Shown: positions 36,030-48,406 of the stretch, one piece after another
Numbering within the stretch: position 1 is the stretch's first letter
Layout of the letters: each line of letters starts with the position of its first letter
Assembly: GCA_934295165.1 (NCBI GenBank)
Contig: CAKRAT010000008.1
Span: forward strand, 1-48,406
Direction: 5' to 3'
Origin: an uncultured Dorea sp.
Lineage (GTDB): Bacteria > Bacillota > Clostridia > Lachnospirales > Lachnospiraceae
DNA length: 48,406 bases
Position numbers and translations under genes: made by a program
Notes under the pieces: model-generated
What the model saw: only the letters and a program-made list of their open reading frames with translations
The model's database searches: none
What the model was told of the DNA's origin: nothing

Positions 36030-36051
36030 ATTCACAACTTTCTCTTAATTT

Positions 36052-36059
36052 CATACAAT
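36052..36059 (+). promoter_or_regulatory. Sigma-E -10 element of the cotJ operon
   Basis: CATACAAT matches the sigma-E consensus CATACANT fully, 35 bases before the cotJA ATG. The cotJ operon of B. subtilis is sigma-E-driven, which supports it; the -35 is weak. Confidence 0.6.
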
Positions 36060-36094
36060 ATTATTGCATAACCTTACTGAAAGGAGTATATGAA

Positions 36095-36388
36095 ATGCCA
36101 AATTATCGTTATAATACACCGGATTATATGCGTCAGAATCATTCCAACGGATGTCATGTCGGTGGAAGCAGCCGGACAATTCCGGCCTCTGTATCACCTT
36201 CTGTCCCATCCCGCCCTTGCTGTAATATTCATGACCATGACAAATTAGCCGGACTTTCGGTTGCAATGGCCTATGTTCCGTGGCAGGAATGGCGTTCCCT
36301 CTATGAAGTTGAAAAAGGATTCCGGTGTGGAACTATTTTTGCCGAATTGAATCTTCCATTCTGCTGGAAAGGTGGTGGTTCACGATGA
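36095..36388 (+). CDS. cotJA: Spore coat associated protein CotJA
   Basis: Small component of the CotJ spore-coat complex, made in the mother cell. The 97-residue protein has a low-complexity N-terminus (about 1-45) and the conserved CotJA core from about residue 50: LAGLSVAMAYVPWQEWRSLYEVEKGFRCGTIFAELNLPF. AAGGAG lies 8 bases before the ATG. Its TGA overlaps the cotJB start (ATGA), as expected for a tightly coupled operon. Confidence 0.93.
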   Translation: MPNYRYNTPDYMRQNHSNGCHVGGSSRTIPASVSPSVPSRPCCNIHDHDKLAGLSVAMAYVPWQEWRSLYEVEKGFRCGTIFAELNLPFCWKGGGSR

Positions 36389-36654
36389 ACGAAAACAAAC
36401 CTTGTAAAAAAGATCTTCTAGAATGGATCAATGTTGTAAGTTTTGCTGTTGATGATGTGAAATTGTTTCTTGATACGCACCCAAACTGCCCTGAAGCACT
36501 TGAGTTTTTTGATGAATTCAAAAAGCAGCGTGTGCAGGCATTAAAAGAATATGCAAAATATTACGGACCACTTACACTGGATACTGCAAATACCCTTATG
36601 GATTACTGGAAATGGATCAATGAACCGTGGCCATGGCAGGAAGGAGGATGTTAA
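36385..36654 (+). CDS. cotJB: Spore coat protein CotJB
   Basis: Second gene of the cotJ operon. The 89-residue protein carries the family segments LLEWINVVSFAVDDVKLFLDTHPNCPEAL and the end WKWINEPWPWQEGGC, with a typical CotJB length. The ATG at 36385 overlaps the cotJA stop and is chosen for the family start MNENKPCKKDLL; a longer frame would overlap cotJA by 60 bases. It is 3 bases before cotJC. Confidence 0.93.
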   Translation: MNENKPCKKDLLEWINVVSFAVDDVKLFLDTHPNCPEALEFFDEFKKQRVQALKEYAKYYGPLTLDTANTLMDYWKWINEPWPWQEGGC

Positions 36655-36657
36655 TTT

Positions 36658-37080
36658 ATGTGGAATTATGAAAAGAGACTGCAATATCCGGTTAAGATTA
36701 CGCAGACCAATCCGAAGATTGCACAGATTATTCTTACGCAATTTGGTGGACCTGACGGAGAGCTTGGTGCTGCGATGCGCTATCTTGCACAGCGGTATAC
36801 TATGCCTTATAAGGAAGTTACCGGAATCCTGACAGACATCGGCACAGAAGAACTGGCACATCTCGAGATCATCTGTGCCATTGTACATCAGCTCACCCGT
36901 AACCTGACTCCGGAACAACTTGAAAAATCCGGCTTTGACAAATATTATGTTGATCATACACTTGCACTGTGGCCGCAGGCAGCCAGTGGAACGCCTTGGA
37001 GTGCTACAACATTTCAGTCTAAAGGCGATCCGATTACGGATCTGCATGAAGACATGGCCGCAGATGGTGCGATTGTGTAA
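36658..37080 (+). pseudogene. cotJC: cotJC, spore-coat manganese-catalase-like protein, split by the ICE
   Basis: CotJC is a ferritin-like manganese-catalase-family protein of about 190 residues. Here only the first part is present: 140 codons starting MWNYEKRLQYPVKIT, with GELGAAMRYLAQRYTMPYKEV and the Glu/His segment GTEELAHLEIICAIVHQL. The sequence follows the family up to DLHEDMAA(D), where the usual AAEQKAR continuation is replaced by DGAIV and a stop. The missing end normally holds the second metal-ligand helix pair. The switch falls at about 37063-37064 (a GA dinucleotide), next to a large serine recombinase gene, so I read it as the left junction of an inserted element. The rest should lie beyond the right edge. 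Confidence 0.85.
37055..37070. mobile_element. Predicted left attachment junction (attL) of the ICE
   Basis: The cotJC reading frame stops matching its family at the GA of 37063-37064. TndX/TnpX recombinases are known to exchange strands at a GA dinucleotide, so this is the predicted crossover. The exact base cannot be proved without the right junction. Confidence 0.6.
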
Positions 37081-37114
37081 AGACAACATTTAATGTTTTA
37101 AAGATAGTTCCCGA

Positions 37115-37141
37115 ACATCTGGCATACTAGTTGCCAGATGT
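37115..37141. other. Strong palindrome near the left ICE end
   Basis: Arms ACATCTGGCA (37115-37124) and TGCCAGATGT (37132-37141) pair over 10 bases, with GTTC/GAAC able to extend the stem. There is no T run, so it is a poor terminator. It lies between the junction and the recombinase stop and might be a recombinase- or accessory-protein site. Confidence 0.5.
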
Positions 37142-37148
37142 GAGAACC

Positions 37149-38720
37149 TTAGAAATTCCAATGTATTTCAATAGGTACATTTTTTGTTACAGGGTCTTTT
37201 TTTCCAACCAATATGTAATCAATCAGTTTATCAACAATTTCCCTGTCTAAATGTTCAAGATTTGTATATTGCTCAATTAACTGGCGTCGATTATCACCAG
37301 CTTGAATTTTTCTTTCAATAACATCAAGCTTTTTCTGCGAATCAATTACCAGTTTTTCAAGCCTTTCTTTTTCTGTCGAGAAGTCTTTGGATAATTCTAA
37401 GAAGTCGGTTTCGGATAATATTCCCTTTACTTTGTCTAAATACAACTCACGGATTCCTTTTGTATATTCAGAAATCTTTTTTTGATAGGCAACTATTTCC
37501 ATATTTACTTCTTCTTGCTGTTCCCGTAAATTATTATTAAACTGAACATTTTCTATAAGTTCGTCTTTATTAAGGTACTCAGCAGATAATTTATTGATTT
37601 CATCAATTACTGCTTTTTCCAATTTGGGAACAGAAATAAATGAACCAATACAGGAATCTTTTGCAACGTGTCTGGTTGGACACTGTAAATAACGTCGTCC
37701 ATCTCGTTGCTTATTTGTGCGTAACGTATAACCACAATTCATGCACCGAGCTTTTCTGGCGAATAAACCTATTTGTCCAACTGTAAACGGTTTGGCTTTT
37801 TGAGCTATCAATGCCTGCACATTATCCCATAATTCTCTATCTATAATAGGTTCATGTGTTCCCTCTACTCTATACCATTGGTCTTTAGGTCTTGGCTTAT
37901 TTTGTTTAGTTTTGTATGAAACACTTCCATATTTTCCTTGAACCATATTACCAATATATATTTCGTTGATGAGCATATCTGATATAGCAAAATACTTCCA
38001 TAAGGTACTGTTTTGAGTCCTAGGTTGCTTATATCGTAAATCATGAAGTCGTTTATATTCTGTTGGATTGGGAATTCCTCTGTCATTCAATATACGTGCA
38101 ATTGCTGTCTTTCCATATCCCTGTGAAAATAATGTAAAAACTTCTCTGACGACTTTGGCGGCTTCTTCATCAATAATCAAATGTCCCTTTTGATCGGGGT
38201 CTTTCTTGTATCCATATAAAGCAAATGCCCCGATATGATATCCATTTTTTCTCCTGTCAGTCAGAACACTTTTTATATTCTCTGACATATCCTCTAAATA
38301 CCATTCATTCACCAGACCGTTAATCTGTCTTGATTTTTTATTTCCCTTATTAGCAGTGTCCGCATTATCTACAATACTGATAAACCGAATCCCCCACACA
38401 GGGAAAAGACCGTGGATATATTTTTCCACCAATTCAAGCTCTCTGGTAAATCTTGATTGTGTCTTACAAAGGACTATATCAAATTTATGATTTTCAGCGT
38501 CATTTAACAGTCGATTAAATTCCGGACGCCGTCTATCAGAGCCGGTGTAATCATCATCACTATATATATTGTAGACTTCCCAGCCTTGCTCTAATGAGTA
38601 TTGGAGTAACATTGATTTTTGATTCTGAATACTGTTACTGTCGTCTGTTTCTGATTGTTTGTTTCTATCTTCTTCTGATAATCGGCAATAAATAGCAACT
38701 CTTAATTTTGATGTTGTCAT
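37149..38720 (-). CDS. Large serine recombinase, TndX/TnpX type
   Basis: Site-specific recombinase expected to integrate and excise the element. The 523-residue protein has the resolvase catalytic domain (about 6-150) with Ser15 in YCRLSEEDR and the Arg-rich SRFTRELE near 89-96. A recombinase domain (about 165-270) contains GAFALYGYKKDP and ARILNDRGIPNP. A zinc ribbon (ARCMNCGYTL...LQCPTRHVAKDSC) and a coiled coil (about 400-475) follow. Length is close to TndX of Tn5397 (533). The ATG at 38718-38720 has AAGGAG 8 bases upstream. The gene ends 85 bases from the cotJC junction, the usual position for this type. Its promoter lies in a palindrome at 38752-38804. Confidence 0.92.
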   Translation of the reverse strand: MTTSKLRVAIYCRLSEEDRNKQSETDDSNSIQNQKSMLLQYSLEQGWEVYNIYSDDDYTGSDRRRPEFNRLLNDAENHKFDIVLCKTQSRFTRELELVEKYIHGLFPVWGIRFISIVDNADTANKGNKKSRQINGLVNEWYLEDMSENIKSVLTDRRKNGYHIGAFALYGYKKDPDQKGHLIIDEEAAKVVREVFTLFSQGYGKTAIARILNDRGIPNPTEYKRLHDLRYKQPRTQNSTLWKYFAISDMLINEIYIGNMVQGKYGSVSYKTKQNKPRPKDQWYRVEGTHEPIIDRELWDNVQALIAQKAKPFTVGQIGLFARKARCMNCGYTLRTNKQRDGRRYLQCPTRHVAKDSCIGSFISVPKLEKAVIDEINKLSAEYLNKDELIENVQFNNNLREQQEEVNMEIVAYQKKISEYTKGIRELYLDKVKGILSETDFLELSKDFSTEKERLEKLVIDSQKKLDVIERKIQAGDNRRQLIEQYTNLEHLDREIVDKLIDYILVGKKDPVTKNVPIEIHWNF

Positions 38721-38751: not shown

Positions 38752-38804
38752 ACAAACTATCTCTACATGATGTCATTATAACATCTAGCAGGATAGTTTG
38801 TCTA
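38752..38804 (-). promoter_or_regulatory. Recombinase promoter embedded in an inverted repeat
   Basis: Minus-strand TAGACA (38799-38804) and TATAAT (38775-38780) are 18 bases apart. Ten-base arms ACAAACTATC (38752-38761) and GATAGTTTGT (38792-38801) flank the -10 and overlap the -35. An inner GATGT/ACATC stem lies around the -10. This looks like an operator for a dimeric regulator or a structured site. Confidence 0.6.
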
Positions 38805-38948
38805 TTATCTGGCAGGTGTTGCCTTTCTGTTGCTTTTTTCATATTGGTTGATAAGTTCAACCCATTTCAAAGTAAATGCTGTTGCTAATGCCGTCTTATC
38901 ACAATTTTTAAAAACATTTTTGCAAACTATATTTGTGTCATTCGCCAT
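38805..38948 (-). CDS. 47-residue protein upstream of the recombinase, unknown function
   Basis: I do not recognise this short gene. It encodes 47 residues starting MANDTNIVCKNVFKN and ending KSNRKATPAR; it is basic with two cysteines (Cys9, Cys16) and a helical middle. A good GAGGTGA site lies 5 bases before the ATG. The stop codon overlaps the -35 region of the recombinase promoter. Its small size, basic charge and place directly before the recombinase make it a candidate accessory factor such as a recombination directionality factor; that is only inference. Confidence 0.6.
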   Translation of the reverse strand: MANDTNIVCKNVFKNCDKTALATAFTLKWVELINQYEKSNRKATPAR

Positions 38949-39286
38949 TGAATCACCTCACTTGCGTATATTTAAGACTATGCAAAAATGCTTGTTCGTT
39001 ATGAAAGATTGTTTATATATAATAAGGTAACAATCAGATGGCTCTGGCAAGCTCCACTGGTGTTTCAACCATTCCCATTCCGATGGGCGAACCGTACTTC
39101 TACGGGTGTATCATTATTCAGATATACAGGTCTTGGCAATAGCTTTTCCACAAGCTATCCGTGGGACATTGAAATAATCGCTCATCAAATCACCCCTTTC
39201 ACCGTCATGGCGGTTCAATCCACTGGCTCGTTGTATATCAAACGTATCTGATTGTTATATTCAATTTTCAAGGTGCGATTTTTGCC
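38949..39286. other. Region between the orf8-like gene and the 47-residue gene
   Basis: No gene of normal size is visible in these 338 bases. On the minus strand an AAAGGGGTG site precedes an ATG (39187-39189) that opens a 23-codon frame, MSDYFNVPRIACGKAIAK and a few more residues, then stops. A GC-rich stretch follows (39040-39110) that looks once coding or structured. It may be the remains of the orf10/xis region of Tn916-type elements; I cannot prove this. Confidence 0.4.
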
Positions 39287-39526
39287 TTAAACTACCTCAA
39301 CTTCAAATTTCAAAATCATTTCCATAAGAGCGGTTCTGATTCTGCCTTTGAGTTCTGTGTCTACTGCTATGTAAATATTCCCGTATTCGTCATACAATGG
39401 ACGTAAGCTGGCTTTTGAAATGTATGCGTCATAATGTTTCAGCACTTTTTCTATTGCCTGTACATCACCATCTGCCGAAAGAGATATAACAGTAAAAGAC
39501 GGGCATTTGTCTGCGGATTTCATCAT
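39287..39526 (-). CDS. Tn916 Orf8-like conjugative transposon protein
   Basis: 79 residues resembling Orf8 of Tn916, a small protein with a helix-turn-helix-like fold that is co-transcribed with orf7 in the regulatory region. The sequence begins MMKSADKCPSFTVISLSADGD and has one acidic/hydrophobic helix near the end (LMEMILKFEVEVV). Its ATG overlaps the stop of the orf7-like gene (ATGA), and GGAGGAC lies before it. No enzymatic motif. In Tn916, transcription through orf7-orf8 runs on toward the recombination genes; here the next large gene is the serine recombinase. Confidence 0.8.
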   Translation of the reverse strand: MMKSADKCPSFTVISLSADGDVQAIEKVLKHYDAYISKASLRPLYDEYGNIYIAVDTELKGRIRTALMEMILKFEVEVV

Positions 39527-39942
39527 TCGTCCTCCTGTAAATACTTTTTGATTTCTTCCAATGAACTTCTACGGTTGCGGAAAGAAGTGCTACGGTCAAT
39601 CTGTAACAAATCGGCAATTTCAGCGTCCGACATTTCCAGAAAATAAAACATCAGTAAAATATCTAGTTTCTTTTCTGGTAAAATCTTCAATGCGTCTGCC
39701 AACTGTTCATTATTAACCTTTACCTTTGTTCCCAATACCTCGAAACAAGAATAATCGCTGTCGTAATCGTCTGTAATACCTACATGATTTAATTCCTGCT
39801 CCGGCAATTCAGAGAAAGCTATCTCGTGTGTTGCCCGTCTGGACAGCTCTCTTTGATAATCTTTTACTGTCGTGTCAATAACACGCTTTACAAGACAATC
39901 AAATTGAAGTCGAATAGCTGTCTGGAAAGAAGAGGGTTTCAT
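39523..39942 (-). CDS. Sigma-70-like regulator (Tn916 Orf7-like)
   Basis: 139-residue sigma-factor-like protein. The C-terminal half (about 85-135) is a region 4 domain: LKILPEKKLDILLMFYFLEMSDAEIADLLQIDRSTSFRNRRSSLEEIKKYL, with the helix-turn-helix near 106-128. The N-terminal half resembles sigma region 2 only weakly. It matches Orf7 of Tn916, which takes part in activating transfer genes. The GGGGGTGAG site precedes the ATG. It lies downstream of two minus-strand terminators, so transcription probably needs readthrough or antitermination from upstream. Confidence 0.85.
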   Translation of the reverse strand: MKPSSFQTAIRLQFDCLVKRVIDTTVKDYQRELSRRATHEIAFSELPEQELNHVGITDDYDSDYSCFEVLGTKVKVNNEQLADALKILPEKKLDILLMFYFLEMSDAEIADLLQIDRSTSFRNRRSSLEEIKKYLQEDE

Positions 39943-40482
39943 GTTCTCACCCCCTTTCTGGCTAAATTGAAAGGGGATAAGAACTCCTTGTCCCTTTTCG
40001 CACTAACACTCGTCTGGCGATTGCGATTTGTTGCACGAAAAGCAAAGAATTTACAAACTTCTTTTAAATAGAAAAAAAGCACTAAGGCAATACAGATGTT
40101 GTACTGACTTTGTGCTTTCTGAATATTTCCTATTGTGTGATGTGAAAAACCACATTCAAGGGTGTAATTCGTTACTGCATAAGCTGGAATTTTTTTAGCT
40201 GTAAGATAAATAGATATTTACAGTTTTGTTGCAATGCAGTTACCTCCGAGAACCGCAAAACAAAACCTTTTGTTGGAAATAAAAAAGCGGTTTTGATCGC
40301 TAAGAAATGAATAAATATTGAGACATTTAAAAAGAACACTACTCATAGCGGTTTTTTTATTAACCTCACAAGTAGTATTTTGTTTTAAAATGCAAAATAT
40401 GAACTCACGAACCTACATATACGTTTTTCAATACCTGTTGATTTACCAACAGGAACTGTAAAATGTAGTGAGGTGATTACAT
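39943..40482. other. Regulatory intergenic region between orf7-like and orf9-like genes
   Basis: No normal gene is visible in 540 bases. The region holds two minus-strand terminator-like hairpins (40072-40118, and a weak 4-bp stem near 40287-40302 followed by six T). It also holds a palindrome CCTGTTG/CAACAGG (40435-40454) just upstream of orf9, and possibly a leader frame of about 20 codons on the minus strand (40172-40234, TTG start behind GGAGG). In Tn916 the matching region controls transcription leaving the resistance gene toward orf7-orf8. Confidence 0.55.
40072..40118 (-). terminator. Minus-strand terminator upstream of the orf7-like gene
   Basis: Outer arms AAAGCAC (40076-40082) and GTGCTTT (40112-40118) close a larger stem with an inner TACA/TGTA pair. 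The minus strand ends with seven T. It would stop transcription entering orf7-orf8 unless conditions allow readthrough. Confidence 0.65.
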
Positions 40483-40839
40483 ATGCGTAAAAAAGAAGAT
40501 AAATACGATTTTAGAGCGTTTGGTCTGGCAATCAAACAAGCTCGGATAAAGCAGGGTCTTACCCGTGAGCAGGTGGGAGCTATGATTGAAATTGACCCAC
40601 GCTATTTAACAAACATCGAGAACAAAGGACAGCACCCAAGTTTACAGGTGCTTTATGACCTTGTTCATTTACTTAATATATCTGCTGATGAATTTTTCTT
40701 ACCTGCCTCTGATCTGGTAAAAAGCACCAGAAGACGGCAGTTAGAAAAGCAACTTGATACTATGTCCGAAAAGGACTTAATCATCATTGAAAGTGTTGCT
40801 GATGGAATTATTAAGTCAAAGGAAGTGGAGGACGAGTAA
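40483..40839 (+). CDS. Helix-turn-helix repressor (Tn916 Orf9-like)
   Basis: 118-residue cI/Xre-type DNA-binding protein. The helix-turn-helix is at about 14-68: [57 protein letters not shown]. The C-terminal part (70-118) is Lys/Glu-rich and helical. It matches Orf9 of Tn916, a proposed negative regulator of transfer genes. It is the only plus-strand gene of the element in the window. GAGGTGA lies 8 bases before the ATG. The palindrome just upstream could be its own operator. Confidence 0.9.
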
Positions 40840-41161: not shown

Positions 41162-42520
41162 TTAATATGGAATTTTAATTATAACCTGTGCGCCGCCAGT
41201 CTTTTTAGAATTGCTTAAAATAAGCTGACCGTCATGTTGTTTGATAATGCTGCTCGTGATATAAAGTCCCATACCAAAGTGCATATTAGAAGTTCTGCTT
41301 TTGTCGCCCATGAAAAACTGTTCTTGTGCATGGTGTAGGGTCTCTGGCGTGAAGCCGCTTCCCTCGTCTGTTATGGATATGTGCAAAAAGCAGTCTGTCA
41401 TTTGCGCTGTTACATAAATTGTCCCCTGTGTTGGAGAGTAGTCTAACGCATTGCTTATCACATTCATAATTGCCCGTTCCAACAGCAACTTATCCGCTTT
41501 GAGTGCGCCCAGGTCAGCTCCCGTTTCCATGTGCAGACAAATTCCTTTAGTAAGGCATAAAGAGCTTGCCTGCGTTTCAATCCGTCTCATGTAATCAGCT
41601 ATATCAAATTTTTCTAAATGAAGCTGATACCCGGCGACTGTCCGGGAAATGTCAATTAACGTCTTAATATAAATGCCTATCTGCTCGGAACTTTCAGTGA
41701 TGTAACCCGCATATAGACGTTGCTCGTCGTCAAGCTCTGTTTCACTTATCAAATCAATATTTCCTTGAATGACGGTCAAAGGTGTTTTCAAATCATGAGC
41801 GAGTGCTGCAATCTGTTCTCTTTGTAATTGTTCCGCGTGCCATTGCTTCTCTAAAGATATTTTCAGATTATCTTTCATATTAGCAAAAGAACAAAGTACA
41901 TCCTCAAATTCTTTGATTTTTGAATGTCCCACTTCAAAATCAAGATTTTGTCCGGCAACCTGCCTTGTTGCTTCAAAAAGCGGGGAGAGCTGCGCCCGCA
42001 TATTTTTTGCAAACTTCGCTATCAATATCACGCATACCGCAATACAATTGATTGCTATGAGAATATAAAGCAGAATTTCCGGTGAGGGAAAATGTTCATA
42101 AAGCCATTCATTTGTAAATTGTGAGCCGATGTAATATTGTAGCACCACATATTCATTTTCGCGGGTCACAAGCAAATACTGTTTGTTGAGGTTTGTATTT
42201 ATCTTCCCAGATATTGCGTATTCCATAGCCCGGTCTAAATCGTCGCCCTCTAAGGTCGTTTCTGTCACTTGATAATTCTTATCCAGCACCAAATACTTGC
42301 AACCCATAGGAAGTTGCACATCTGTCAAATCCGGCGTTGCAGCAATAACAGGAACAAGTTTTTTTGCACTGCGTTCTGAATAATCCGCATAGGTAATAAG
42401 TCCCGTACTGGTTCCGGCTAAAATAAGACTGAATGGTATCACCACCGCACCTATTAGCCCAATCAGAATCATACATAAGAATTTCCAAAAAGACGCTTTC
42501 AGTGATGTTGTTTTCTTCAT
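41162..42520 (-). CDS. Sensor histidine kinase of the immunity module (NisK/SpaK/CprK-like position)
   Basis: Membrane sensor kinase that probably detects a lantibiotic or cell-wall stress and phosphorylates the adjacent regulator. From the ATG at 42518-42520 it is 452 residues. There are two membrane helices (about 13-38 and 150-170), an extracytoplasmic sensor of about 110 residues between them, and a HAMP-like linker. The phosphoacceptor His242 lies in AALAHDLKTPLTVIQGN; the N box is VISNALDYSP and the G boxes are DEGSGF and FGMGLYI. The start overlaps the regulator stop (ATGA); an ATG two codons earlier is also possible. Ligand specificity cannot be read from sequence. Confidence 0.9.
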   Translation of the reverse strand: MKKTTSLKASFWKFLCMILIGLIGAVVIPFSLILAGTSTGLITYADYSERSAKKLVPVIAATPDLTDVQLPMGCKYLVLDKNYQVTETTLEGDDLDRAMEYAISGKINTNLNKQYLLVTRENEYVVLQYYIGSQFTNEWLYEHFPSPEILLYILIAINCIAVCVILIAKFAKNMRAQLSPLFEATRQVAGQNLDFEVGHSKIKEFEDVLCSFANMKDNLKISLEKQWHAEQLQREQIAALAHDLKTPLTVIQGNIDLISETELDDEQRLYAGYITESSEQIGIYIKTLIDISRTVAGYQLHLEKFDIADYMRRIETQASSLCLTKGICLHMETGADLGALKADKLLLERAIMNVISNALDYSPTQGTIYVTAQMTDCFLHISITDEGSGFTPETLHHAQEQFFMGDKSRTSNMHFGMGLYITSSIIKQHDGQLILSNSKKTGGAQVIIKIPY

Positions 42521-43176
42521 TCCCATTTATACCCAATCCCCCAGACTGTCGCTATCGGCTGAATATCCAGTTTGTTTAATTTTGCCCGGATATTTTTGAT
42601 ATGAGTAGAAATTGTAGAATTATCACTGTCGCCCTCTAAGCTGAAAACCGCTTCGTAAATCTGTTCTTTTGAAAATACCTGTCCTTTGTTCCTTGCAAGA
42701 TATTCACAAATCAGATATTCGCTTTTGGTTAAGATAACGGGCATGTTATCTACCCGTAATTCTTTTGCAGATAAATCAATTTTTATTCGGTCAAAGGTAA
42801 GTGCGGTATGGCGTTCCCTGTGTTCACGCCGTAAGTGGGCGTTTACCCTCGCCCGTAATTCTGCAATTCGGAAAGGTTTTGTCAGATAGTCGTCTGCTCC
42901 CAGACCAAGCCCAAATGTGATGTCATGTTCCATTGTCTTTGCAGTCAGAAAAAGAATAGGGTAGTCCACAAGGGAACGGATTTTATCACAATAAGAAAAA
43001 CCATCTATATCCGGCATCATAATATCCAGTATAATCAAATCGTACCTATTCAGTTTATCAAGCGGCACCTGTGCAGCAGAGGTATAGGCAGTTACAAAAT
43101 GCCCGTCCTTTTGCAGTCCATTTTTCACAAGCTCTAAAATAGCCTGTTCATCATCAATCATAAGGATCGCTGCCAT
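42517..43176 (-). CDS. OmpR-family response regulator of the immunity module
   Basis: DNA-binding partner of the kinase, expected to switch on the LanFEG operon. The 219-residue protein has the receiver domain (1-115) with MIDDE at 6-10 and phosphoacceptor Asp51 in LIILDIMMPDIDGF, and Lys80 in LTAK. A winged-helix effector domain (about 125-219) contains LTKSEYLICEYLARNKGQVFSKEQI and ends VWGIGYKWE. AAAGGAGG is 7 bases before the ATG at 43174-43176; a longer frame would overlap the upstream lipoprotein gene end. It is followed by the kinase with a 4-base overlap. Confidence 0.92.
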   Translation of the reverse strand: MAAILMIDDEQAILELVKNGLQKDGHFVTAYTSAAQVPLDKLNRYDLIILDIMMPDIDGFSYCDKIRSLVDYPILFLTAKTMEHDITFGLGLGADDYLTKPFRIAELRARVNAHLRREHRERHTALTFDRIKIDLSAKELRVDNMPVILTKSEYLICEYLARNKGQVFSKEQIYEAVFSLEGDSDNSTISTHIKNIRAKLNKLDIQPIATVWGIGYKWE

Positions 43177-43237
43177 ATTGTTGCCTCCTTTCGTTGTCGT
43201 TTTCAGTATAGCACAAGCTACAAGGGCAGGAAAGCTG

Positions 43238-44047
43238 TCATTGTCGCTTTGCAATATAGTAGTTATCATTTACATTGACCGCAACCGCTTCAGCTTTATC
43301 GGTTCCGTAAATCTCATAAATATCTGTGTAAAACCAATTCTCCCGCCCTTGTCCAGCATTTTCCCCGTACCAATCAATCTTGCTTAAATCTTCCTTTGAC
43401 AAAGGGATTTTCGTTTCTGTATCGAATGTAACACTTTCTGCAAGAATATCAATGTAGCTGCCTAATTCATCATCCGATACCATATCAGACGTTACTTGAT
43501 AAATCGTCCCCCCACAAAGGAGTTGTGTTGCATTTTCTGGATTGACTTCAAAGCTGCCGTTTATAGATTTTTCTGTTTTCTTAAAATCAAAAACCATATC
43601 GTTATCCTTGACATTCTCGCTGATAACAGCTTTATGATACCCACCATTTATATCTACAATCAGATAAGCATCTGCGTTAGGAGCTGCATATACATTGAGG
43701 AAAGGAATAATGTAAGCGGCTTCTGGTGCTTTCTCTGCCAAATCCGCTAAAGAATGAAAGGTAGCCGTTTCAACATTTTCTTGCAGCAATATTTTCCCTT
43801 TTTCATCTATGGCTGCCAGTTGCCGGATATATCCAATCCATTCTCCAAGCCCACCATTCGATACGGTATCTGCCAAAATCGTGTAATTGTTGCCCTTATA
43901 GGAAAATCGTGTTACGTTTTCCGTATCCAGATAACATTGTTCTTTGTCACTGGAATATTCTTTGATTTTATCCTGTAAAGAGCAGCCGGCAAGAGCGGCA
44001 CAAACAATAAAAGCAAACAGCACAAACATAATCCGTTTTTTATTCAT
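43238..44047 (-). CDS. NisI/SpaI-like lantibiotic immunity lipoprotein
   Basis: Lipoprotein expected to sit on the outer face of the membrane and bind a lantibiotic, sparing lipid II. The 269-residue protein has a signal peptide with lipobox ALAGC (Cys22). Two related units follow: about 45-70 reads FSYKGNNYTILADTVSNGGLGEWIGYI and about 180-210 reads CGGTIYQVTSDMVSDDELGSYIDIL. NisI of the nisin system is also built from two SpaI-like units. The start overlaps the upstream permease stop by 8 bases, so it belongs to the transporter operon. The peptide it recognises is unknown. Confidence 0.82.
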   Translation of the reverse strand: MNKKRIMFVLFAFIVCAALAGCSLQDKIKEYSSDKEQCYLDTENVTRFSYKGNNYTILADTVSNGGLGEWIGYIRQLAAIDEKGKILLQENVETATFHSLADLAEKAPEAAYIIPFLNVYAAPNADAYLIVDINGGYHKAVISENVKDNDMVFDFKKTEKSINGSFEVNPENATQLLCGGTIYQVTSDMVSDDELGSYIDILAESVTFDTETKIPLSKEDLSKIDWYGENAGQGRENWFYTDIYEIYGTDKAEAVAVNVNDNYYIAKRQ

Positions 44048-44771
44048 AATTTTTTCGCCCCTCCCAATGAGAAAACCATAGTAAAGTCAATAACACGCCG
44101 CCTATTGTTAATGCAGCAATCCATATCCATTCTGTTACATGAACAGAAAGCCCATTGTTCAAAACATCATGCACCCAGTTCATAGACCATGCAAAGGGGA
44201 TATACCGCCATATTCCTTTTAACTCAATATTACTGTATAGAATACATTGCAGGCTTTCAAATACACCCAAAAACAATGAGATACCCAGTCCAAACCGAAA
44301 GCTAAAGAATAAATGCAGAGCATAAATAATTAAATTGTAAAATGCCATTCCTGCGGCTGCTTTAACTAACATACTCAGTTGTACGGTATCAGCTATTTTT
44401 AAAAAATGAACGCCAAGCAGAAAGACAAGAAACAGATAAAACAGCGCAGCTATTCCTGCTCCATATAAAACGACCAATTTTGTCAGCATAACTTTATATC
44501 GGTTAGGTACTTCAAGCAATATTTGAAAGTGTGAAGCCTTTTCTTCTAATAAGACATTCAGGCTAACGATAACACTTATCAGCAAAGGAAAAACGGTTGC
44601 TGTAATCTCCAATATCATTTTTAACTTTTTGTAATCCGCTGTGCTTCCATATAAGACATAGTAAACAATAAACAGCAATGCCCCAACAACAGGCAGACAT
44701 AAATGCATCGTCCAAAACGGCGTATGCTTCACTTTTACCAGTTCAGAATGAACCGCTCCAAGAAAGCCCAT
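44040..44771 (-). CDS. Lantibiotic-immunity ABC transporter permease (LanG/MutG-like)
   Basis: Integral membrane subunit of a LanFEG-type exporter that removes lantibiotics from the membrane. The 243-residue protein has about six helices and the family-like start MGFLGAVHSELVKVKHTPFWTMHL, where a short amphipathic 'SELxKxK..' element precedes the first helix (about 26-45). The last helix ends near 233 and is followed by WFSHWEGRKNYE. It is 5 bases after the other permease gene. Assignment as LanG rather than LanE is by order and resemblance only. Confidence 0.85.
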   Translation of the reverse strand: MGFLGAVHSELVKVKHTPFWTMHLCLPVVGALLFIVYYVLYGSTADYKKLKMILEITATVFPLLISVIVSLNVLLEEKASHFQILLEVPNRYKVMLTKLVVLYGAGIAALFYLFLVFLLGVHFLKIADTVQLSMLVKAAAGMAFYNLIIYALHLFFSFRFGLGISLFLGVFESLQCILYSNIELKGIWRYIPFAWSMNWVHDVLNNGLSVHVTEWIWIAALTIGGVLLTLLWFSHWEGRKNYE

Positions 44772-44776
44772 ACTGT

Positions 44777-45496
44777 TTACCTCCTTTTTGAAAAATCCTT
44801 TGCGTCCACAAAAGATAATACAACGAATAAGAATATTGATAGTGCAATAGAGATAAAAACGGTTGTGGAAAAGCCGGGATTTCCTGCAAAAGTTCCGTTT
44901 AGGTCAATCCCCATAAGCGGCTCTGCCAGTTTCGCCGCCCAACAATACGGCATGAGCCACCAAACGGCTGTGTTTCCCAACGAGACAGGAAGAAGTATTC
45001 CAGGTACGGTATTTAGTATTATCGGCACAAACAGCCCTGTTTTACGCGCAAGATACAAGCATAACGGGATTTGCCAGACGGACGCGAGAGCAATCGCTAT
45101 GCAACCTGCTATACTCTGTGGGACAGAATATACCGCCGTTTCCGGGGAAATGATATTGCTGCTTGAGATAAGTAATGCTAAAAATATTCCTGCTACAAGC
45201 AGCTTTTCAATCAGAATAATTCCTTTTGCCATTTCAAATTTTGAAAGGTTCAAGGGCATAGAAAATACAGAATAATATTTCCCTGCGCTTTCTTCTTTCC
45301 GGTGTGATAAGGAACATAAAATTGCGATTGCTCCCGGAAGCAGGAACTCATACCACCAGTAAAGCGTCATATATTGAAAACCGATGAAGCCGCCCACTAT
45401 CCATGCAAAAATAGCTGTGATAAGTGGAATGATGAAAAGCAGCTTGTTTGATATTGTCCTTTTGAATTTCAAATGTTCTGATTTTAAGTAGTTCAT
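44777..45496 (-). CDS. Lantibiotic-immunity ABC transporter permease (LanE/MutE-like)
   Basis: First permease of the LanFEG exporter. The 239-residue protein begins MNYLKSEHLKFKRTISNKLLF, the same 'SEHLKFKRT' type lead-in as MutE/EpiE permeases. It has about six helices spread over 20-235, with the polar stretch CSLSHRKEESAGKYYSVFSMPL between helices. It follows the ATPase gene by 3 bases and precedes the second permease, so both permeases probably form a heterodimer. Confidence 0.87.
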   Translation of the reverse strand: MNYLKSEHLKFKRTISNKLLFIIPLITAIFAWIVGGFIGFQYMTLYWWYEFLLPGAIAILCSLSHRKEESAGKYYSVFSMPLNLSKFEMAKGIILIEKLLVAGIFLALLISSSNIISPETAVYSVPQSIAGCIAIALASVWQIPLCLYLARKTGLFVPIILNTVPGILLPVSLGNTAVWWLMPYCWAAKLAEPLMGIDLNGTFAGNPGFSTTVFISIALSIFLFVVLSFVDAKDFSKRR

Positions 45497-45499
45497 GCC

Positions 45500-46201
45500 T
45501 TACCCCTCCCTGTGGTTATTTTTTACAACGTCCATAAAAAGCTGTTCCAAATTTTCATTCGCATTAAGTTTCCCCTCATAGCCTAAGACACCGCCCGCAA
45601 TAATGCCGATATGGTCTGCTGTCTGCTGCACCTCGGAAAGAATATGACTGGATAAAATAACGGTAATTCCCTTTGCCGGAAAGGAACGGATAAGCTCCCT
45701 AAGTTTTTCAATCCCCACCGGGTCAAGACCGTTTGTAGGCTCGTCAAGAATAAGCAGCTTCGGACTATTTAATAATGCAATCGCAATTCCAAGCCGTTGC
45801 TTCATTCCAAGAGAAAACTGTCCGGCTCTTTTTCTGCCTGTTTCTGTCAGCCGGACGATTTGGAGCACTTCCTCAATCTTTTTGTCTGTCAGCCCTAAAA
45901 GGGTTGACCTAACTTTCAGATTTTCATAGGCGGTTAAATTCTCATAAAGCGGCGGCATTTCAATCAATGCCCCGATGTGGTTTAAGTCGCTTCTCTGCCA
46001 TGTGTGACCGTCAAACTCAATGCTTCCAGATGTCGGCTTCAAAATGCCTGTTATCATTTTGAGTGTTGTGGACTTTCCGGCTCCGTTTGCTCCTAACAAT
46101 CCATAGACAGAGTTTTTTTCAATGTTCAGCGATATGTTATTTACGGCTGTCTGCCCACTGAATGATTTGCAGAGATTTGTTGTTTTCAAAATTATACTCA
46201 T
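45500..46201 (-). CDS. Lantibiotic-immunity ABC transporter ATPase (LanF/MutF-like)
   Basis: ATP-hydrolysing subunit of the LanFEG exporter. The 233-residue protein has Walker A GANGAGKST at 37-45, signature FSLGMKQ at 129-135 and Walker B LLILDEPTNGLD at 149-160. The Q-loop position is occupied by Glu (IGALIEMPPLYENLTAYENL, Glu81), the 'E-loop' described for lantibiotic-immunity ATPases. It is the first gene of the operon lanF-lanE-lanG-lanI-lanR-lanK. Its ribosome site AAAGGA is held in the 3' arm of a hairpin (46210-46242). The promoter at 46414-46442 lies 212 bases upstream. Confidence 0.93.
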   Translation of the reverse strand: MSIILKTTNLCKSFSGQTAVNNISLNIEKNSVYGLLGANGAGKSTTLKMITGILKPTSGSIEFDGHTWQRSDLNHIGALIEMPPLYENLTAYENLKVRSTLLGLTDKKIEEVLQIVRLTETGRKRAGQFSLGMKQRLGIAIALLNSPKLLILDEPTNGLDPVGIEKLRELIRSFPAKGITVILSSHILSEVQQTADHIGIIAGGVLGYEGKLNANENLEQLFMDVVKNNHREG

Positions 46202-46500: not shown

Positions 46501-47403
46501 CTATCCTACAATCTTCCAGTTATCGTCCTTATGAAGCACAAGCTCATACTGCGAAATTTGCGTCATTTTCGACTTGTTATCCAGATATTTCACAGACACA
46601 CTGACCTTGAGGTTATCGCCATCTTTGGTAAAGACAGGATTTACCAGTTCTGAAAATACATAATCGCCGGATACAGGAGCAAGCACACCGTCTTTGACAT
46701 AGTAGGCAAGTTCTTTCTCCGTAGCGGTAGGGTACAGTTTGAAGAATGTTTCCAAGAAAGCGGTAGCGTCCTTAACTGTGTCAGAGCTAACACTGACATC
46801 TGCTTCCTGTGCTTTTGGCTCATACTTTGATTTCTGTACTGCCGGAGCAAGGGTGGGATTTTGGGTAATGACCATTGCACCGTCCTTATCCACATGAACC
46901 GTCACCGTGTAGTTTTCTACAACTGCCTGTGTCTGTTCTCCCTCTTTTACCTGCTGATCTACTTCGTAGTCAACGGTAAAATCGTCCGTACCAGACTGTT
47001 CCACATTCCAGACCAGCACATTTGTAACAGTGGCACTGGTTGGTATATCTGTTCGGATAGTATCGGCGTTCAAATCCTGCAATTCTTTGGTCAGATATTT
47101 ACTGATTTCTGTTGTCCTTGCTTCAATCGCTTCCTTGCTGGTATCCCATGTGTAGTAGGCTTTCGCAAAGTTCTTGACAAAATTTTCAATCCCGTTGGTG
47201 TCGTTCAACTTTAACTGAATGATTTCTTTTTCGTGCACTGTGTGGGTATCAATGGCGGTAAAGTTCTTGTACATGCCAAAACTGGTGCTTGCAAGAAGTA
47301 CCGCCCACAAAAGCAGGACAGATTTCTTGTGTGTCCCGACTTTCATGGTACGCACTTTCTTTTCTTTGGGTTCTTTCATTGTTTTTTCTTTCTTCTTAAA
47401 CAT
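46501..47403 (-). CDS. Conjugal transfer protein TcpC-like (Tn916 Orf13-like)
   Basis: Bitopic protein of the conjugation channel. The 300-residue protein has a very basic cytoplasmic tail (1-27), one membrane helix at about 28-45, and two NTF2-like outer domains (about 70-185 and 205-300), the layout of TcpC/Orf13 proteins. The second domain includes DATAFLETFFKLYPTATEKELAYYVKDG and ends HKDDNWKIVG. AAAGGA lies 8 bases before the ATG. It follows the orf14-like gene by 14 bases, as in Tn916. Expected partners (VirB4- and VirD4-like) lie outside the window. Confidence 0.9.
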   Translation of the reverse strand: MFKKKEKTMKEPKEKKVRTMKVGTHKKSVLLLWAVLLASTSFGMYKNFTAIDTHTVHEKEIIQLKLNDTNGIENFVKNFAKAYYTWDTSKEAIEARTTEISKYLTKELQDLNADTIRTDIPTSATVTNVLVWNVEQSGTDDFTVDYEVDQQVKEGEQTQAVVENYTVTVHVDKDGAMVITQNPTLAPAVQKSKYEPKAQEADVSVSSDTVKDATAFLETFFKLYPTATEKELAYYVKDGVLAPVSGDYVFSELVNPVFTKDGDNLKVSVSVKYLDNKSKMTQISQYELVLHKDDNWKIVG

Positions 47404-47417
47404 ATTTCAAGTCCTTT

Positions 47418-48406
47418 CTATTGCTTAATTCTTCCGGCACAAATGATGTGCTGTTGCCAGTAGGCAGAGGTCAAATCGGTATAACCAATGGGATTTCCGG
47501 CATGGTACATCTGATTATTTCCAGCATAAATACCCACATGGGTAACATAGTCACTGGTATTGTAAGTGGAATGGAAAAATACCAAATCGCCAGCCTGTGC
47601 CTGTGACAATGGGATATGCTGTGTTGCGTCATACTGTGCCTGTGCAGTTCGTGGCAAACTAATTCCGGCTTTTCCGTAGCACCACTGGGTAAGACCAGAA
47701 CAGTCAAAAGAGGTGTTCGGATTACTGCCACCATAGACATATTTCCAGCCTTGATATTTCAATGCTTCATTCATAACCGCCTGTACGGTTGCGTTGCTGA
47801 ACTGCTTTACAGTCAGATATTGATTGACCAGCTCCACATAAAACATATTTCCGTAGTTATAACGCCAGCCACCATTTTTACTGACAGCTATCGGAGTGGT
47901 ATAGGTTACTTTTGTACCGCCGGATTTGTTTTTTGCGAAATTCTCTGCAAGATTGAAACTGTGCTTTTTCCCATTTTTTGCCACATAGTCTGCATAGCCA
48001 CCACCATAGTTATAGGACTGAATGACCACGTTAATGTCTGTCATACCTTTCCCTTTACAGGAAGAAAGCAGGGACGCAAAATATTTACACCCCTGCTTGA
48101 TAGAATCCTCTGTACTTAATGAGTTCGGCGGTAACCCCAGACTTTCACTGGACTGCATGACATCGGTAGCTGTACCGCCACTTTCCACCTGTATGATAGC
48201 AAGCAAGACATTCACATACTCCGAAATACCGTTTTCTCTGGCGTATTTTTCTACCATTGGCTGATGTTTGAGAACATCTGCTGACAGGTTCATGCCGGAG
48301 TAGACCGCCGAATAGCTGTTAGAGTTGTCATCATCTTCGCCGGAAATCAGTATCCCGAAAAAGAGGACGATGGAGAAAAGGACAGGAAATATCGTACCTA
48401 TGATAA
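47418..48406 (-). CDS. Bifunctional lysozyme / NlpC-P60 cell-wall hydrolase (Tn916 Orf14-like, CwlT type), partial
   Basis: Wall-cutting enzyme that opens peptidoglycan for the conjugation channel. The frame runs open through the right edge, so the 5' end is missing; an internal ATG at 48291-48293 is not the true start. The visible N-terminal part is a hydrophobic membrane segment and SGEDDDNSNSYSAVYSG linker. A lysozyme-like domain follows (about 40-180; LLAIIQVESGG, with catalytic Glu, and QSYNYGGGYADYV). The C-terminal NlpC/P60 domain has FDCSGLTQWCYGKAG (catalytic Cys), THVGIYAG (His) and YHAG. This two-enzyme layout matches Orf14 of Tn916 and CwlT of ICEBs1. Confidence 0.92.
   Translation of the reverse strand, partial: IIGTIFPVLFSIVLFFGILISGEDDDNSNSYSAVYSGMNLSADVLKHQPMVEKYARENGISEYVNVLLAIIQVESGGTATDVMQSSESLGLPPNSLSTEDSIKQGCKYFASLLSSCKGKGMTDINVVIQSYNYGGGYADYVAKNGKKHSFNLAENFAKNKSGGTKVTYTTPIAVSKNGGWRYNYGNMFYVELVNQYLTVKQFSNATVQAVMNEALKYQGWKYVYGGSNPNTSFDCSGLTQWCYGKAGISLPRTAQAQYDATQHIPLSQAQAGDLVFFHSTYNTSDYVTHVGIYAGNNQMYHAGNPIGYTDLTSAYWQQHIICAGRIKQ

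What the first reader, a model, noticed from the sequence alone, without database searches (positions are those of the whole stretch)
36658..38720. A conjugative element has split the spore-coat gene cotJC at a GA dinucleotide
cotJC follows its family up to DLHEDMAA and then diverges within two codons, stopping after 140 of about 190 codons. The divergence lies at GA (37063-37064), the dinucleotide used by TndX/TnpX recombinases, 85 bases from a recombinase of that type. The lost part carries half of the expected manganese ligands. If the recombinase excises the element, cotJC would be exactly restored, which parallels sporulation-timed excision of the skin element (SpoIVCA). A conserved sporulation gene as integration target would be notable.
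Basis: partly seen in the sequence, partly recalled or inferred. Interest (0 to 1): 0.8.

Follow-up and report, generated by a model that had tools for sequence, protein, structure and literature searches.

The report
Mobile elements split spore gene cotJC
A gene-transfer element sits in the middle of a spore-coat gene in a gut bacterium, and relatives show that a whole family of such elements aims at exactly this spot, with signs that the element is cut out again in the cell that builds the spore so that the gene becomes whole.

Summary
The split of cotJC at GA 37063-37064 is real: the gene stops after 140 codons (intact relatives: mostly 197-208) beside a large serine recombinase. The window ends inside the element and no genome of its own is held, so its far end is unseen. 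Relatives supply it. Of the 80 best cotJC loci kept, 7 have the same cut, and all 7 genomes hold the missing 3' part. In 19 genomes with both ends these rejoin at GA; in G293 the shared sequence is exactly GA. The cut codon is Glu136, aligned with a manganese ligand of known catalases. Of 22 family-level recombinases at least 58% identical, 21 lie inside a split cotJC. A nearly identical ~20 kb Tn916-type element occurs in two distant hosts. In one sister-species pair the split gene shows 19 synonymous and 0 amino-acid changes. A 47-residue ORF before the recombinase has a sigmaE-type (mother-cell) promoter-like site in 24 of 32 loci, against 13 of 819 long ORFs; a sigmaA-type promoter precedes the recombinase. 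The layout resembles C. difficile skin and gin. Excision itself was not observed, and some hosts have a second cotJC-like gene. A new, conjugative, site-bound variant of sporulation-gene intervening elements.

The parts
36033..36062 (+). Promoter-like site of the cotJ operon (sigmaK type: AC, 16 nt, CATACAATA)
   Evidence: CATANNNT lies within 110 nt before cotJA in 55 of 57 loci; the AC 16 nt upstream was read by eye and the sigmaK consensus is recalled
36095..36388 (+). cotJA
   Evidence: PF11007, E 5.5e-18
36385..36654 (+). cotJB
   Evidence: PF12652, E 2e-29
36658..37080 (+). 5' part of cotJC (codons 1-135 native) plus an element-encoded tail, 140 codons
   Evidence: PF05067; compared with 80 loci
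37063..37064 (+). Core dinucleotide GA of attL = first two bases of Glu codon 136 (now GAT)
   Evidence: shared core holds GA in 19 of 19 genomes with both ends, exactly GA in G293
37065..37086 (+). Element half-site of attL (N12 + GTAAAGACAA), partner of the TTGTnCTTAC arm at attR in relatives
   Evidence: arms match at 14-19 of 22 positions around GA
37149..38720 (-). Large serine recombinase (TndX/TnpX type, DUF4368), ATG start 38720
   Evidence: PF00239, PF07508, PF13408, PF14287; 79-89% identity beside split cotJC in 6 genomes
38775..38804 (-). sigmaA-type promoter of the recombinase: TAGACA, 18 nt, TATAAT
   Evidence: at most 2 of 12 mismatches in 21 of 30 loci, 2.3 expected by shuffle
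38805..38948 (-). Conserved 47-aa ORF, candidate recombination directionality factor
   Evidence: profile finds it before 35 of 35 recombinases of the clade (25 of these were in the profile), 0 of 16 others; no Pfam or NCBIfam hit
38974..39004 (-). sigmaE-type promoter-like site: TCATAAC ... GCATAGTCTT, 17 nt between ATA and CATA
   Evidence: 11.57 bits with a model trained on host spoIVA promoters; 24 of 32 loci >= 11.5 vs 13 of 819 long ORFs
39054..39117 (-). pemK RNA motif
   Evidence: Rfam RF02913, 41.2 bits, over gathering 34.8
39287..39526 (-). HTH_16 regulator (Tn916 orf8-like; name recalled)
   Evidence: PF12645 E 1.2e-24
39523..39942 (-). Sigma-70 region-4 protein (Tn916 orf7-like; name recalled)
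   Evidence: PF08281 E 1.1e-6
40268..40495 (-). SQ2397 RNA, cis-regulator of an HTH factor
   Evidence: Rfam RF03532, 127.8 bits
40483..40839 (+). HTH_3 regulator conserved among the ICEs
   Evidence: PF01381; 78-88% identity to G002, G004, G006, G234 and G293 elements
41162..43269 (-). Cargo: histidine kinase and response regulator
   Evidence: PF00512, PF02518, PF00072, PF00486
43238..46201 (-). Cargo: lantibiotic-immunity protein (Spa1_C), a 243-aa ORF without a Pfam hit, a 239-aa ORF with a sub-threshold ABC2_membrane_4 match, ABC ATPase
   Evidence: PF18218 E 6.3e-62, PF00005 E 7e-34; PF12730 E 1.2e-5, 25.8 bits against a cut-off of 27
46501..47403 (-). TcpC conjugation protein (Tn916 orf13-like; name recalled)
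   Evidence: PF12642 E 4e-54
47418..48404 (-). NlpC/P60 + lysozyme-like conjugation hydrolase (Tn916 orf14-like; name recalled); runs off the window
   Evidence: PF13702, PF00877

Best explanation
The window shows the left end of a Tn916/Tn5397-type integrative conjugative element whose TndX-like recombinase integrates specifically at the GA of Glu codon 136 of cotJC. SHOWN in relatives: the missing 3' part of cotJC lies at the other end, and recombination at GA would restore the reading frame exactly. INFERRED: during growth a sigmaA promoter makes recombinase alone, which keeps the element in place and lets it integrate after transfer. In the mother cell a sigmaE promoter makes a 47-residue partner protein together with recombinase; the partner turns the reaction to excision, and cotJC, itself under a sigmaK-type promoter, becomes whole in time to be expressed. 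The spore genome keeps the element, so the element can target a spore gene at little cost.
For: Same cut in 7 of the 80 loci kept; 3' remainder found in 7 of 7 of those genomes. Of 22 genomes given to, 19 had both ends and all 19 rejoin at GA; the joined frame, printed for 18, reads MAAEQKAR in all 18. attP arms are mirror images around GA, 14-19 of 22 positions. Recombinases >=58% identical: 21 of 22 family-level matches inside a split cotJC, 7 of 9 class-level. One clade, support 100/98, holds all 34 cotJC-sited rows of the tree. Recent transfer: G006, G132 and G234 recombinases differ at dS 0-0.003 while their cotJC N parts are 61-68% identical in DNA; the G006 and G234 elements are mostly 97-100% alike per protein. 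Function kept while split: sister species G348/G025, with no second cotJC match, have 19 synonymous and 0 non-synonymous changes in 194 codons against 24 and 14 in the recombinase (Fisher p 0.002). sigmaE-type site before the small ORF in 24 of 32 loci vs 13 of 819 long ORFs; the model also finds spoIIID upstream regions in 23 of 25. The same division of labour is published for skin of C. difficile (PMC5025042, passages) and gin (GirX, 42 aa; PMC5595907, passages).
Against: The window's own right end is unseen. Another full-length cotJC-like match exists in 3 of the 7 first-scan split genomes (G003, G006, G007) and in 4 of the 17 genomes (G132, G145, G294, G334), so loss of the split copy could be tolerated there. 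No attP circle was found: 23 pattern matches in viral contigs, none with the second arm (the pattern covered one form of the arm). The window's sigmaE score (11.57) is just over the threshold, and the element sites mostly use spacing 17 where spoIIID promoters mostly use 16. The training sites were picked with a pattern shaped by the recalled sigmaE consensus. Other DUF4368 recombinases also exceed the shuffled 95th percentile in 5 of 14, at scattered places. TndX of Tn5397 is described as sufficient for excision (title of a paper cited in PMC4430133), so a partner may be unnecessary. An unmatched test gave split genes more amino-acid change than intact ones (26 vs 95, p 4e-6), confounded by distance; for the 9 split and 81 intact genes at similar distance there was no difference (p 0.37). 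Two class-level relatives (L250, L252) and one family-level (L149) are not at cotJC.
Confidence: 0.72

Rival explanations
1. Ordinary site-specific ICE with no link to sporulation: cotJC is merely a dispensable, conserved safe harbour; the element excises at low frequency in growing cells to conjugate, and CotJC is lost in most spores.
For: Recent horizontal spread; sigmaA-type promoter on the recombinase in 21 of 30 loci. A further full-length cotJC-like match exists in G003, G006 and G007 of 7 and in G132, G145, G294 and G334 of 17.
Against: Zero amino-acid changes in the split gene of G348/G025, which have no second match; sigmaE-type site at a near-fixed place before the small ORF; 7 of 7 remainders without stops; in G001, G002 and G004 the two pieces were the only matches.
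Confidence: 0.22
2. The element in the window has killed cotJC for good: it is immobile here or the 3' part is lost.
For: The right end is not in the window and cannot be reached.
Against: Recombinase frame intact, 523 aa from ATG 38720; attL intact and like that of complete relatives; conjugation genes intact as far as visible.
Confidence: 0.05
3. Assembly or chimera artefact.
For: The window may be a metagenome contig; the protein search shows several suspicious CotJC hybrids.
Against: Same junction in genomes titled as strains, such as Sporofaciens musculi (one 5.4 Mb contig) and Diplocloster modestus, with both ends on one contig.
Confidence: 0.01

Closest known systems
skin element in sigK (C. 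difficile: recombinase CD1231, RDF CD1234)
   Same: Splits a mother-cell gene; large serine recombinase from a sigmaA promoter; separate small protein under sigmaE and SpoIIID needed for excision (PMC5025042, passages)
   Different: skin is described as prophage-like and splits a sigma factor gene; here conjugative or cargo elements in a coat/catalase gene, recently transferred between hosts, recombinase of the DUF4368 type
gin in gerE of Bacillus cereus (GirC + GirX)
   Same: Non-phage intervening element, site-specific recombinase plus a 42-aa RDF, sporulation timing (PMC5595907, passages)
   Different: gin carries no structural genes for conjugation and sits in gerE; the sequence of GirX was not compared here
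SPbeta in spsM, vfbin in spoVFB, yin in yabG
   Same: Mobile elements inside sporulation genes (PMC4191935, PMC10747680, passages)
   Different: Prophages or prophage-like; other genes
Tn5397 (Tn916 family with TndX)
   Same: Tn916-like element with a large serine recombinase and a GA in the target; 21 kb (PMC4430133, passages)
   Different: Tn5397 prefers Fic-domain DNA and TndX is described as sufficient for excision; here the target is cotJC and a 47-aa ORF accompanies the recombinase. No direct sequence comparison with TndX was made

Membership tests
Large serine recombinase of the TndX/TnpX (DUF4368) type | Resolvase + Recombinase + zinc ribbon + DUF4368 | tested here: met
   four Pfam domains over cut-off
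Large serine recombinase of the TndX/TnpX (DUF4368) type | Central GA dinucleotide at the exchange site | tested here: met
   shared core contains GA in 19 of 19, exactly GA in G293; published for TndX (PMC4430133, passages)
Large serine recombinase of the TndX/TnpX (DUF4368) type | Multi-targeting insertion, reported for many members of a clade in which 63% carry DUF4368 (PMC10083194, passages) | tested here: not met
   21 of 22 inside cotJC; this subclade is site-specific. Not a feature of every member, so no bar to membership
Tn916-family ICE | Tn916-type conjugation gene set | tested here: inconclusive
   Window shows TcpC and NlpC/P60 only before it ends; the related G006 element adds AAA_10 ATPase, TcpE, ArdA, Rep_trans relaxase-type protein, FtsK-type ATPase and two DUF961 proteins (10 of its proteins scanned)
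Tn916-family ICE | Demonstrated conjugative transfer | not testable with these tools
   Only indirect: near-identical elements in distant hosts
Sporulation-gene intervening element | Splits a sporulation gene whose other part lies at the far end, in frame on rejoining | tested here: met
   In relatives 19 of 19 with both ends, of 22 given; for the window itself not testable
Sporulation-gene intervening element | Excision timed to the mother cell | tested here: inconclusive
   sigmaE-type site 24 of 32 vs 13 of 819; no expression or excision data
Sporulation-gene intervening element | Recombination directionality factor | not testable with these tools
   47-aa ORF is a candidate by place and conservation only

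The most novel reading that the evidence does not exclude
Conjugative elements serve as transferable developmental introns: one recombinase clade spread across Lachnospiraceae and other Clostridia is dedicated to the active-site Glu codon of cotJC, carries a matched sigmaE-driven small partner, and is removed in each mother cell. cotJC is an exon-intron-like gene there, cut at up to four places by distantly related recombinase lineages and sometimes in three pieces at once, while spoIIID, by match scores, looks split in about a tenth of the same genomes.
Probability: 0.6. Interest if true: 0.88.

Novelty: new variant of a known kind. Interest (0 to 1): 0.75.

Why it matters
The intervening elements in sporulation genes that I found in print are a handful of Bacillus and Clostridium cases, mostly prophages or prophage remnants. 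Here a gut-bacterial family shows mobile, conjugative versions caught in recent spread, at one site, with a candidate regulatory switch visible in sequence. That makes a long-standing question testable: how a mobile element gains by living inside a developmental gene, and whether programmed DNA excision is routine in gut spore formers. It also warns annotators that short CotJC or half SpoIIID genes need not be pseudogenes, and it gives genome engineers a site-specific recombinase family with a defined target.

Tried and rejected
Own-genome search for the cotJC remainder: no genome held. attP of an excised circle in viral contigs: 23 exact pattern matches, none with the mirror arm, taken as chance; the pattern covered one form of the arm only. 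Pooled dN test of split against intact genes (26 split and 95 intact) pointed to more amino-acid change in split genes but compares remote with near relatives; for those with at most 0.245 nucleotide difference from the nearest intact gene (9 of 26 and 81 of 95) there is no difference, so neither supports the model strongly. SpoIIID-box search before the small ORF: perfect matches 7 of 31 against 53 of 819 background, matches with at most one mismatch 17 of 31 against 418 of 819; too weak to use, and the consensus is recalled, since the paper passages did not print it. First sigmaE scan with a recalled B. subtilis consensus was unimpressive; the host-trained model replaced it. Pfam and NCBIfam names for the small ORF: none. 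Literature: searches and the passages seen showed no report of elements inside cotJC or of a split spoIIID (spoIIID was a term only, 12 of 32 papers listed); one search listed 40 of 48 papers with cotJC, no paper was read whole, and subscription papers are mostly not held, so this is no proof of absence. Two papers place phage phi027 next to a cotJC homologue in C. difficile (PMC11222575, PMC12122855, passages), beside rather than inside it as described there.
Full report
OBSERVATION. The cotJ operon (cotJA, cotJB, cotJC) lies at 36095-37080. cotJC matches PF05067 over profile positions 1-150 of 284 and stops after 140 codons. The last native residues are DLHEDMAA; the next codon, at 37063, reads GAT where relatives have GAG/GAA. 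The recombinase begins 85 bases on, reading towards cotJC, with the Resolvase, Recombinase, zinc-ribbon and DUF4368 domains. The tract to the window's right edge holds HTH and sigma-like regulators, a two-component system, a Spa1_C lantibiotic-immunity protein, an ABC ATPase, TcpC and an NlpC/P60-lysozyme protein.

RELATIVES. In 7 of 80 (L001, L002, L030, L040, L043, L049, L055) the gene is cut at the same base and ends after 140 codons. Six of the 7 have a recombinase 79-89% identical to that of the window directly beside the cut; the seventh contig ends there. The missing part was then sought in those genomes: 7 of 7 hold it, in frame and without stops in the matched part. In Sporofaciens musculi the two halves are about 5.6 kb apart and in Diplocloster modestus about 20.3 kb apart, each on one contig; in the other five they are on separate contigs. 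Three of the 7 (G003, G006, G007) also hold a second, full-length cotJC-like match. Of 120 listed homologous proteins (7,998 scored), 11 are 140 residues long; all 11 were read and end just after MAA(D/E).

JUNCTIONS. Of 22 split genomes given to, 19 had both ends. The shared sequence always contains GA and in G293 is GA alone, which fixes the exchange point. Joining the two flanks restores MAA-E-QKAR in the 18 whose joined frame was printed; the print for G111 was empty because its contig starts inside the gene, but its two junctions show the same GA. The stop counts printed for G294 and G111 are artefacts of a fixed-length stretch running into a second element or past the contig start. In G007 and G285 the rejoined gene is itself cut again further on. 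The element arms form a mirror-image attP, about TTGTnCTTAC-N12-GA-N12-GTAAGnACAA, with 14-19 of 22 positions matching between the arms. Codon 136 aligns with E148 of L. plantarum manganese catalase (1jku; alignment; ligand role recalled), so the target is the codon of an active-site residue.

SPECIFICITY AND SPREAD. In 397 family genomes, cotJC (E <= 0.001) is found in 243 and a recombinase at E <= 1e-120 in 23, with 24 matches. Of the 22 matches with at least 58% identity, 20 lie directly beside a cotJC half and one more (L151) in tandem inside the same split gene; the exception is L149. In 391 class genomes, 7 of 9 new matches at that level lie beside cotJC and none of the 16 below it. In viral contigs 6 of 9 do; two more end at the contig edge and one (46%) is elsewhere. 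A tree of 54 recombinases puts all 34 cotJC-sited rows in one clade of 39 (support 100/98); the recombinase sits at the left end in 20 and the right end in 14 of these, with several switches. Element sizes where both halves share a contig run from about 5.6 to 74 kb. G006 and G234 carry a nearly identical ~20 kb element (most proteins 97-100% identical) whose G006 copy has a Tn916-type gene set: AAA_10 ATPase, TcpE, TcpC, NlpC/P60-lysozyme, ArdA, Rep_trans, FtsK-type ATPase and DUF961 proteins. G006, G132 and G234 recombinases differ at dS 0-0.003 although the host genes differ widely. Other elements at the site, such as those of G001, G111, G285 and G377, share little with the window beyond the recombinase. 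So this is a living, transferring family, not one old fixed insertion.

IS THE SPLIT GENE KEPT? G348 and G025, the only two genomes held of their genus, share the insertion and have no second cotJC match. Their cotJC halves differ by 19 synonymous and 0 non-synonymous changes in 194 codons; the recombinase by 24 and 14 in 515 (Fisher p 0.002). Flanking chromosomal genes have dS 0.03-0.30 and matched element-end genes 0.03-0.10, while most ORFs of the compared element interior of G348 had no match in the G025 stretch. Common descent of the insertion is likely, but a later transfer is not excluded. A wider comparison did not help: raw, split genes look faster; at similar distance, 9 split and 81 intact genes do not differ (p 0.37).

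REGULATION. Before the recombinase lies a 47-aa ORF (38805-38948). A profile finds it before 35 of 35 recombinases of the clade, ten of which were not in the profile, and 0 of 16 other DUF4368 recombinases. Just upstream of the recombinase, at the end of that ORF, is a sigmaA-type promoter: 21 of 30 loci with at most 2 of 12 mismatches, 2.3 expected. To test for a mother-cell promoter I trained a model on 24 upstream sites of spoIVA from 30 host genomes; the sites were picked with a pattern shaped by the recalled sigmaE consensus, and spoIVA and spoIIID are named as sigmaE targets in PMC5025042 (passage). The model scores spoIIID upstream regions above the shuffled 95th percentile in 23 of 25, and the regions before the small ORF in 19 of 25. 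Looking only 20-65 nt before start codons, it finds a site of at least 11.5 bits before the small ORF in 24 of 32 loci, all 30-46 nt from the start, against 13 of 819 long ORFs of the first 80 loci under the same restriction; at 14.5 bits 18 of 32 against 1 of 819. The loci are related, so they are not 32 independent events, but at least three sequence forms of the site occur. The window's own site scores 11.57, near the threshold. In 14 other DUF4368 recombinases the median (6.04) is close to the shuffled median (5.90), though 5 exceed the 95th percentile at scattered places. The cotJ operon itself has CATANNNT within 110 nt before cotJA in 55 of 57 loci, with AC about 16 nt upstream read by eye, a sigmaK-type arrangement (consensus recalled).

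MODEL. sigmaA gives recombinase alone, integration and maintenance; sigmaE gives the small protein plus recombinase, excision in the mother cell; sigmaK then transcribes a whole cotJC. Shown: anatomy, specificity, rejoinability, transfer, constraint in one pair, promoter-like sites. Inferred: that the small protein is a directionality factor and that excision occurs and is timed. The same logic is published for C. difficile skin, where CD1231 is expressed from a sigmaA promoter and CD1234 under sigmaE and SpoIIID (PMC5025042, passages), and for gin, where the RDF GirX has 42 residues (PMC5595907, passages). Cautions are Tn5397, whose TndX is described as sufficient for excision (PMC4430133, passages), and the hosts with a second cotJC-like gene.

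WIDER PICTURE. cotJC is cut at other places too: near codons 29-33 (G072, G132), 58-66 (G294) and 173-176 (G008, G009, G013, G285), and the five recombinases scanned at the last two sites are again serine recombinases. G072, G285 and G294 have the gene in three pieces. While using spoIIID as a control I found it split in 4 of 30 genomes, with both sides read for all 4. In 397 family genomes, 250 have a spoIIID match, and I count 29 whose best match has only a half-gene score (E 6e-24 to 3e-14), 22 of them with two or more matches; apart from G001, G234 and G244 these were not examined.

VERDICT. It is a new, conjugative and highly target-bound variant of a known kind, the sporulation-gene intervening element.

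Noticed in passing
G001 C2:4724945-4756289 (L339, L340), G234 C22:153842-161351 (L341), G244 C1:136680-154609 (L342), G002 C96/C36 (L343, L344): spoIIID, a mother-cell regulator, is split near codon 37 in 4 of 30 genomes, the halves about 7, 18 and 31 kb apart in three and on separate contigs in the fourth; by score 29 of 250 family genomes with a match look half-length.
   Followed up: partly
L208, L209, L210, L204 (codon ~173-176); L206 (codon ~58-66); L211/L212 and L145 (codon ~29-33): Three further break sites in cotJC; the recombinases scanned at two of them are serine recombinases only 21-28% identical to the window's type in the two compared; some genes are in three pieces.
   Followed up: partly
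window 38805-38948 (-): Conserved 47-aa ORF without a Pfam or NCBIfam match, found with the cotJC-clade recombinases tested and with none of 16 others.
   Followed up: partly
window 39054-39117 (-) and 40268-40495 (-): Rfam matches pemK RNA and SQ2397 RNA inside the element, both over the gathering score.
   Followed up: no
window 41162-46201 (-): Cargo looks like a lantibiotic immunity cassette: two-component system, Spa1_C protein, ABC ATPase and a sub-threshold ABC-2 permease match.
   Followed up: partly
L148, L150, L154-L157, L159, L160, L164 against L141-L147: The recombinase lies at the right or the left end of the element in otherwise like junctions, with several switches on the tree: apparently the element can be turned round relative to the target.
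   Followed up: partly
L215, L217 (viral contigs): Contigs filed as viral hold cotJC codons 63-136 between two serine recombinases, suggesting two elements in one gene.
   Followed up: partly
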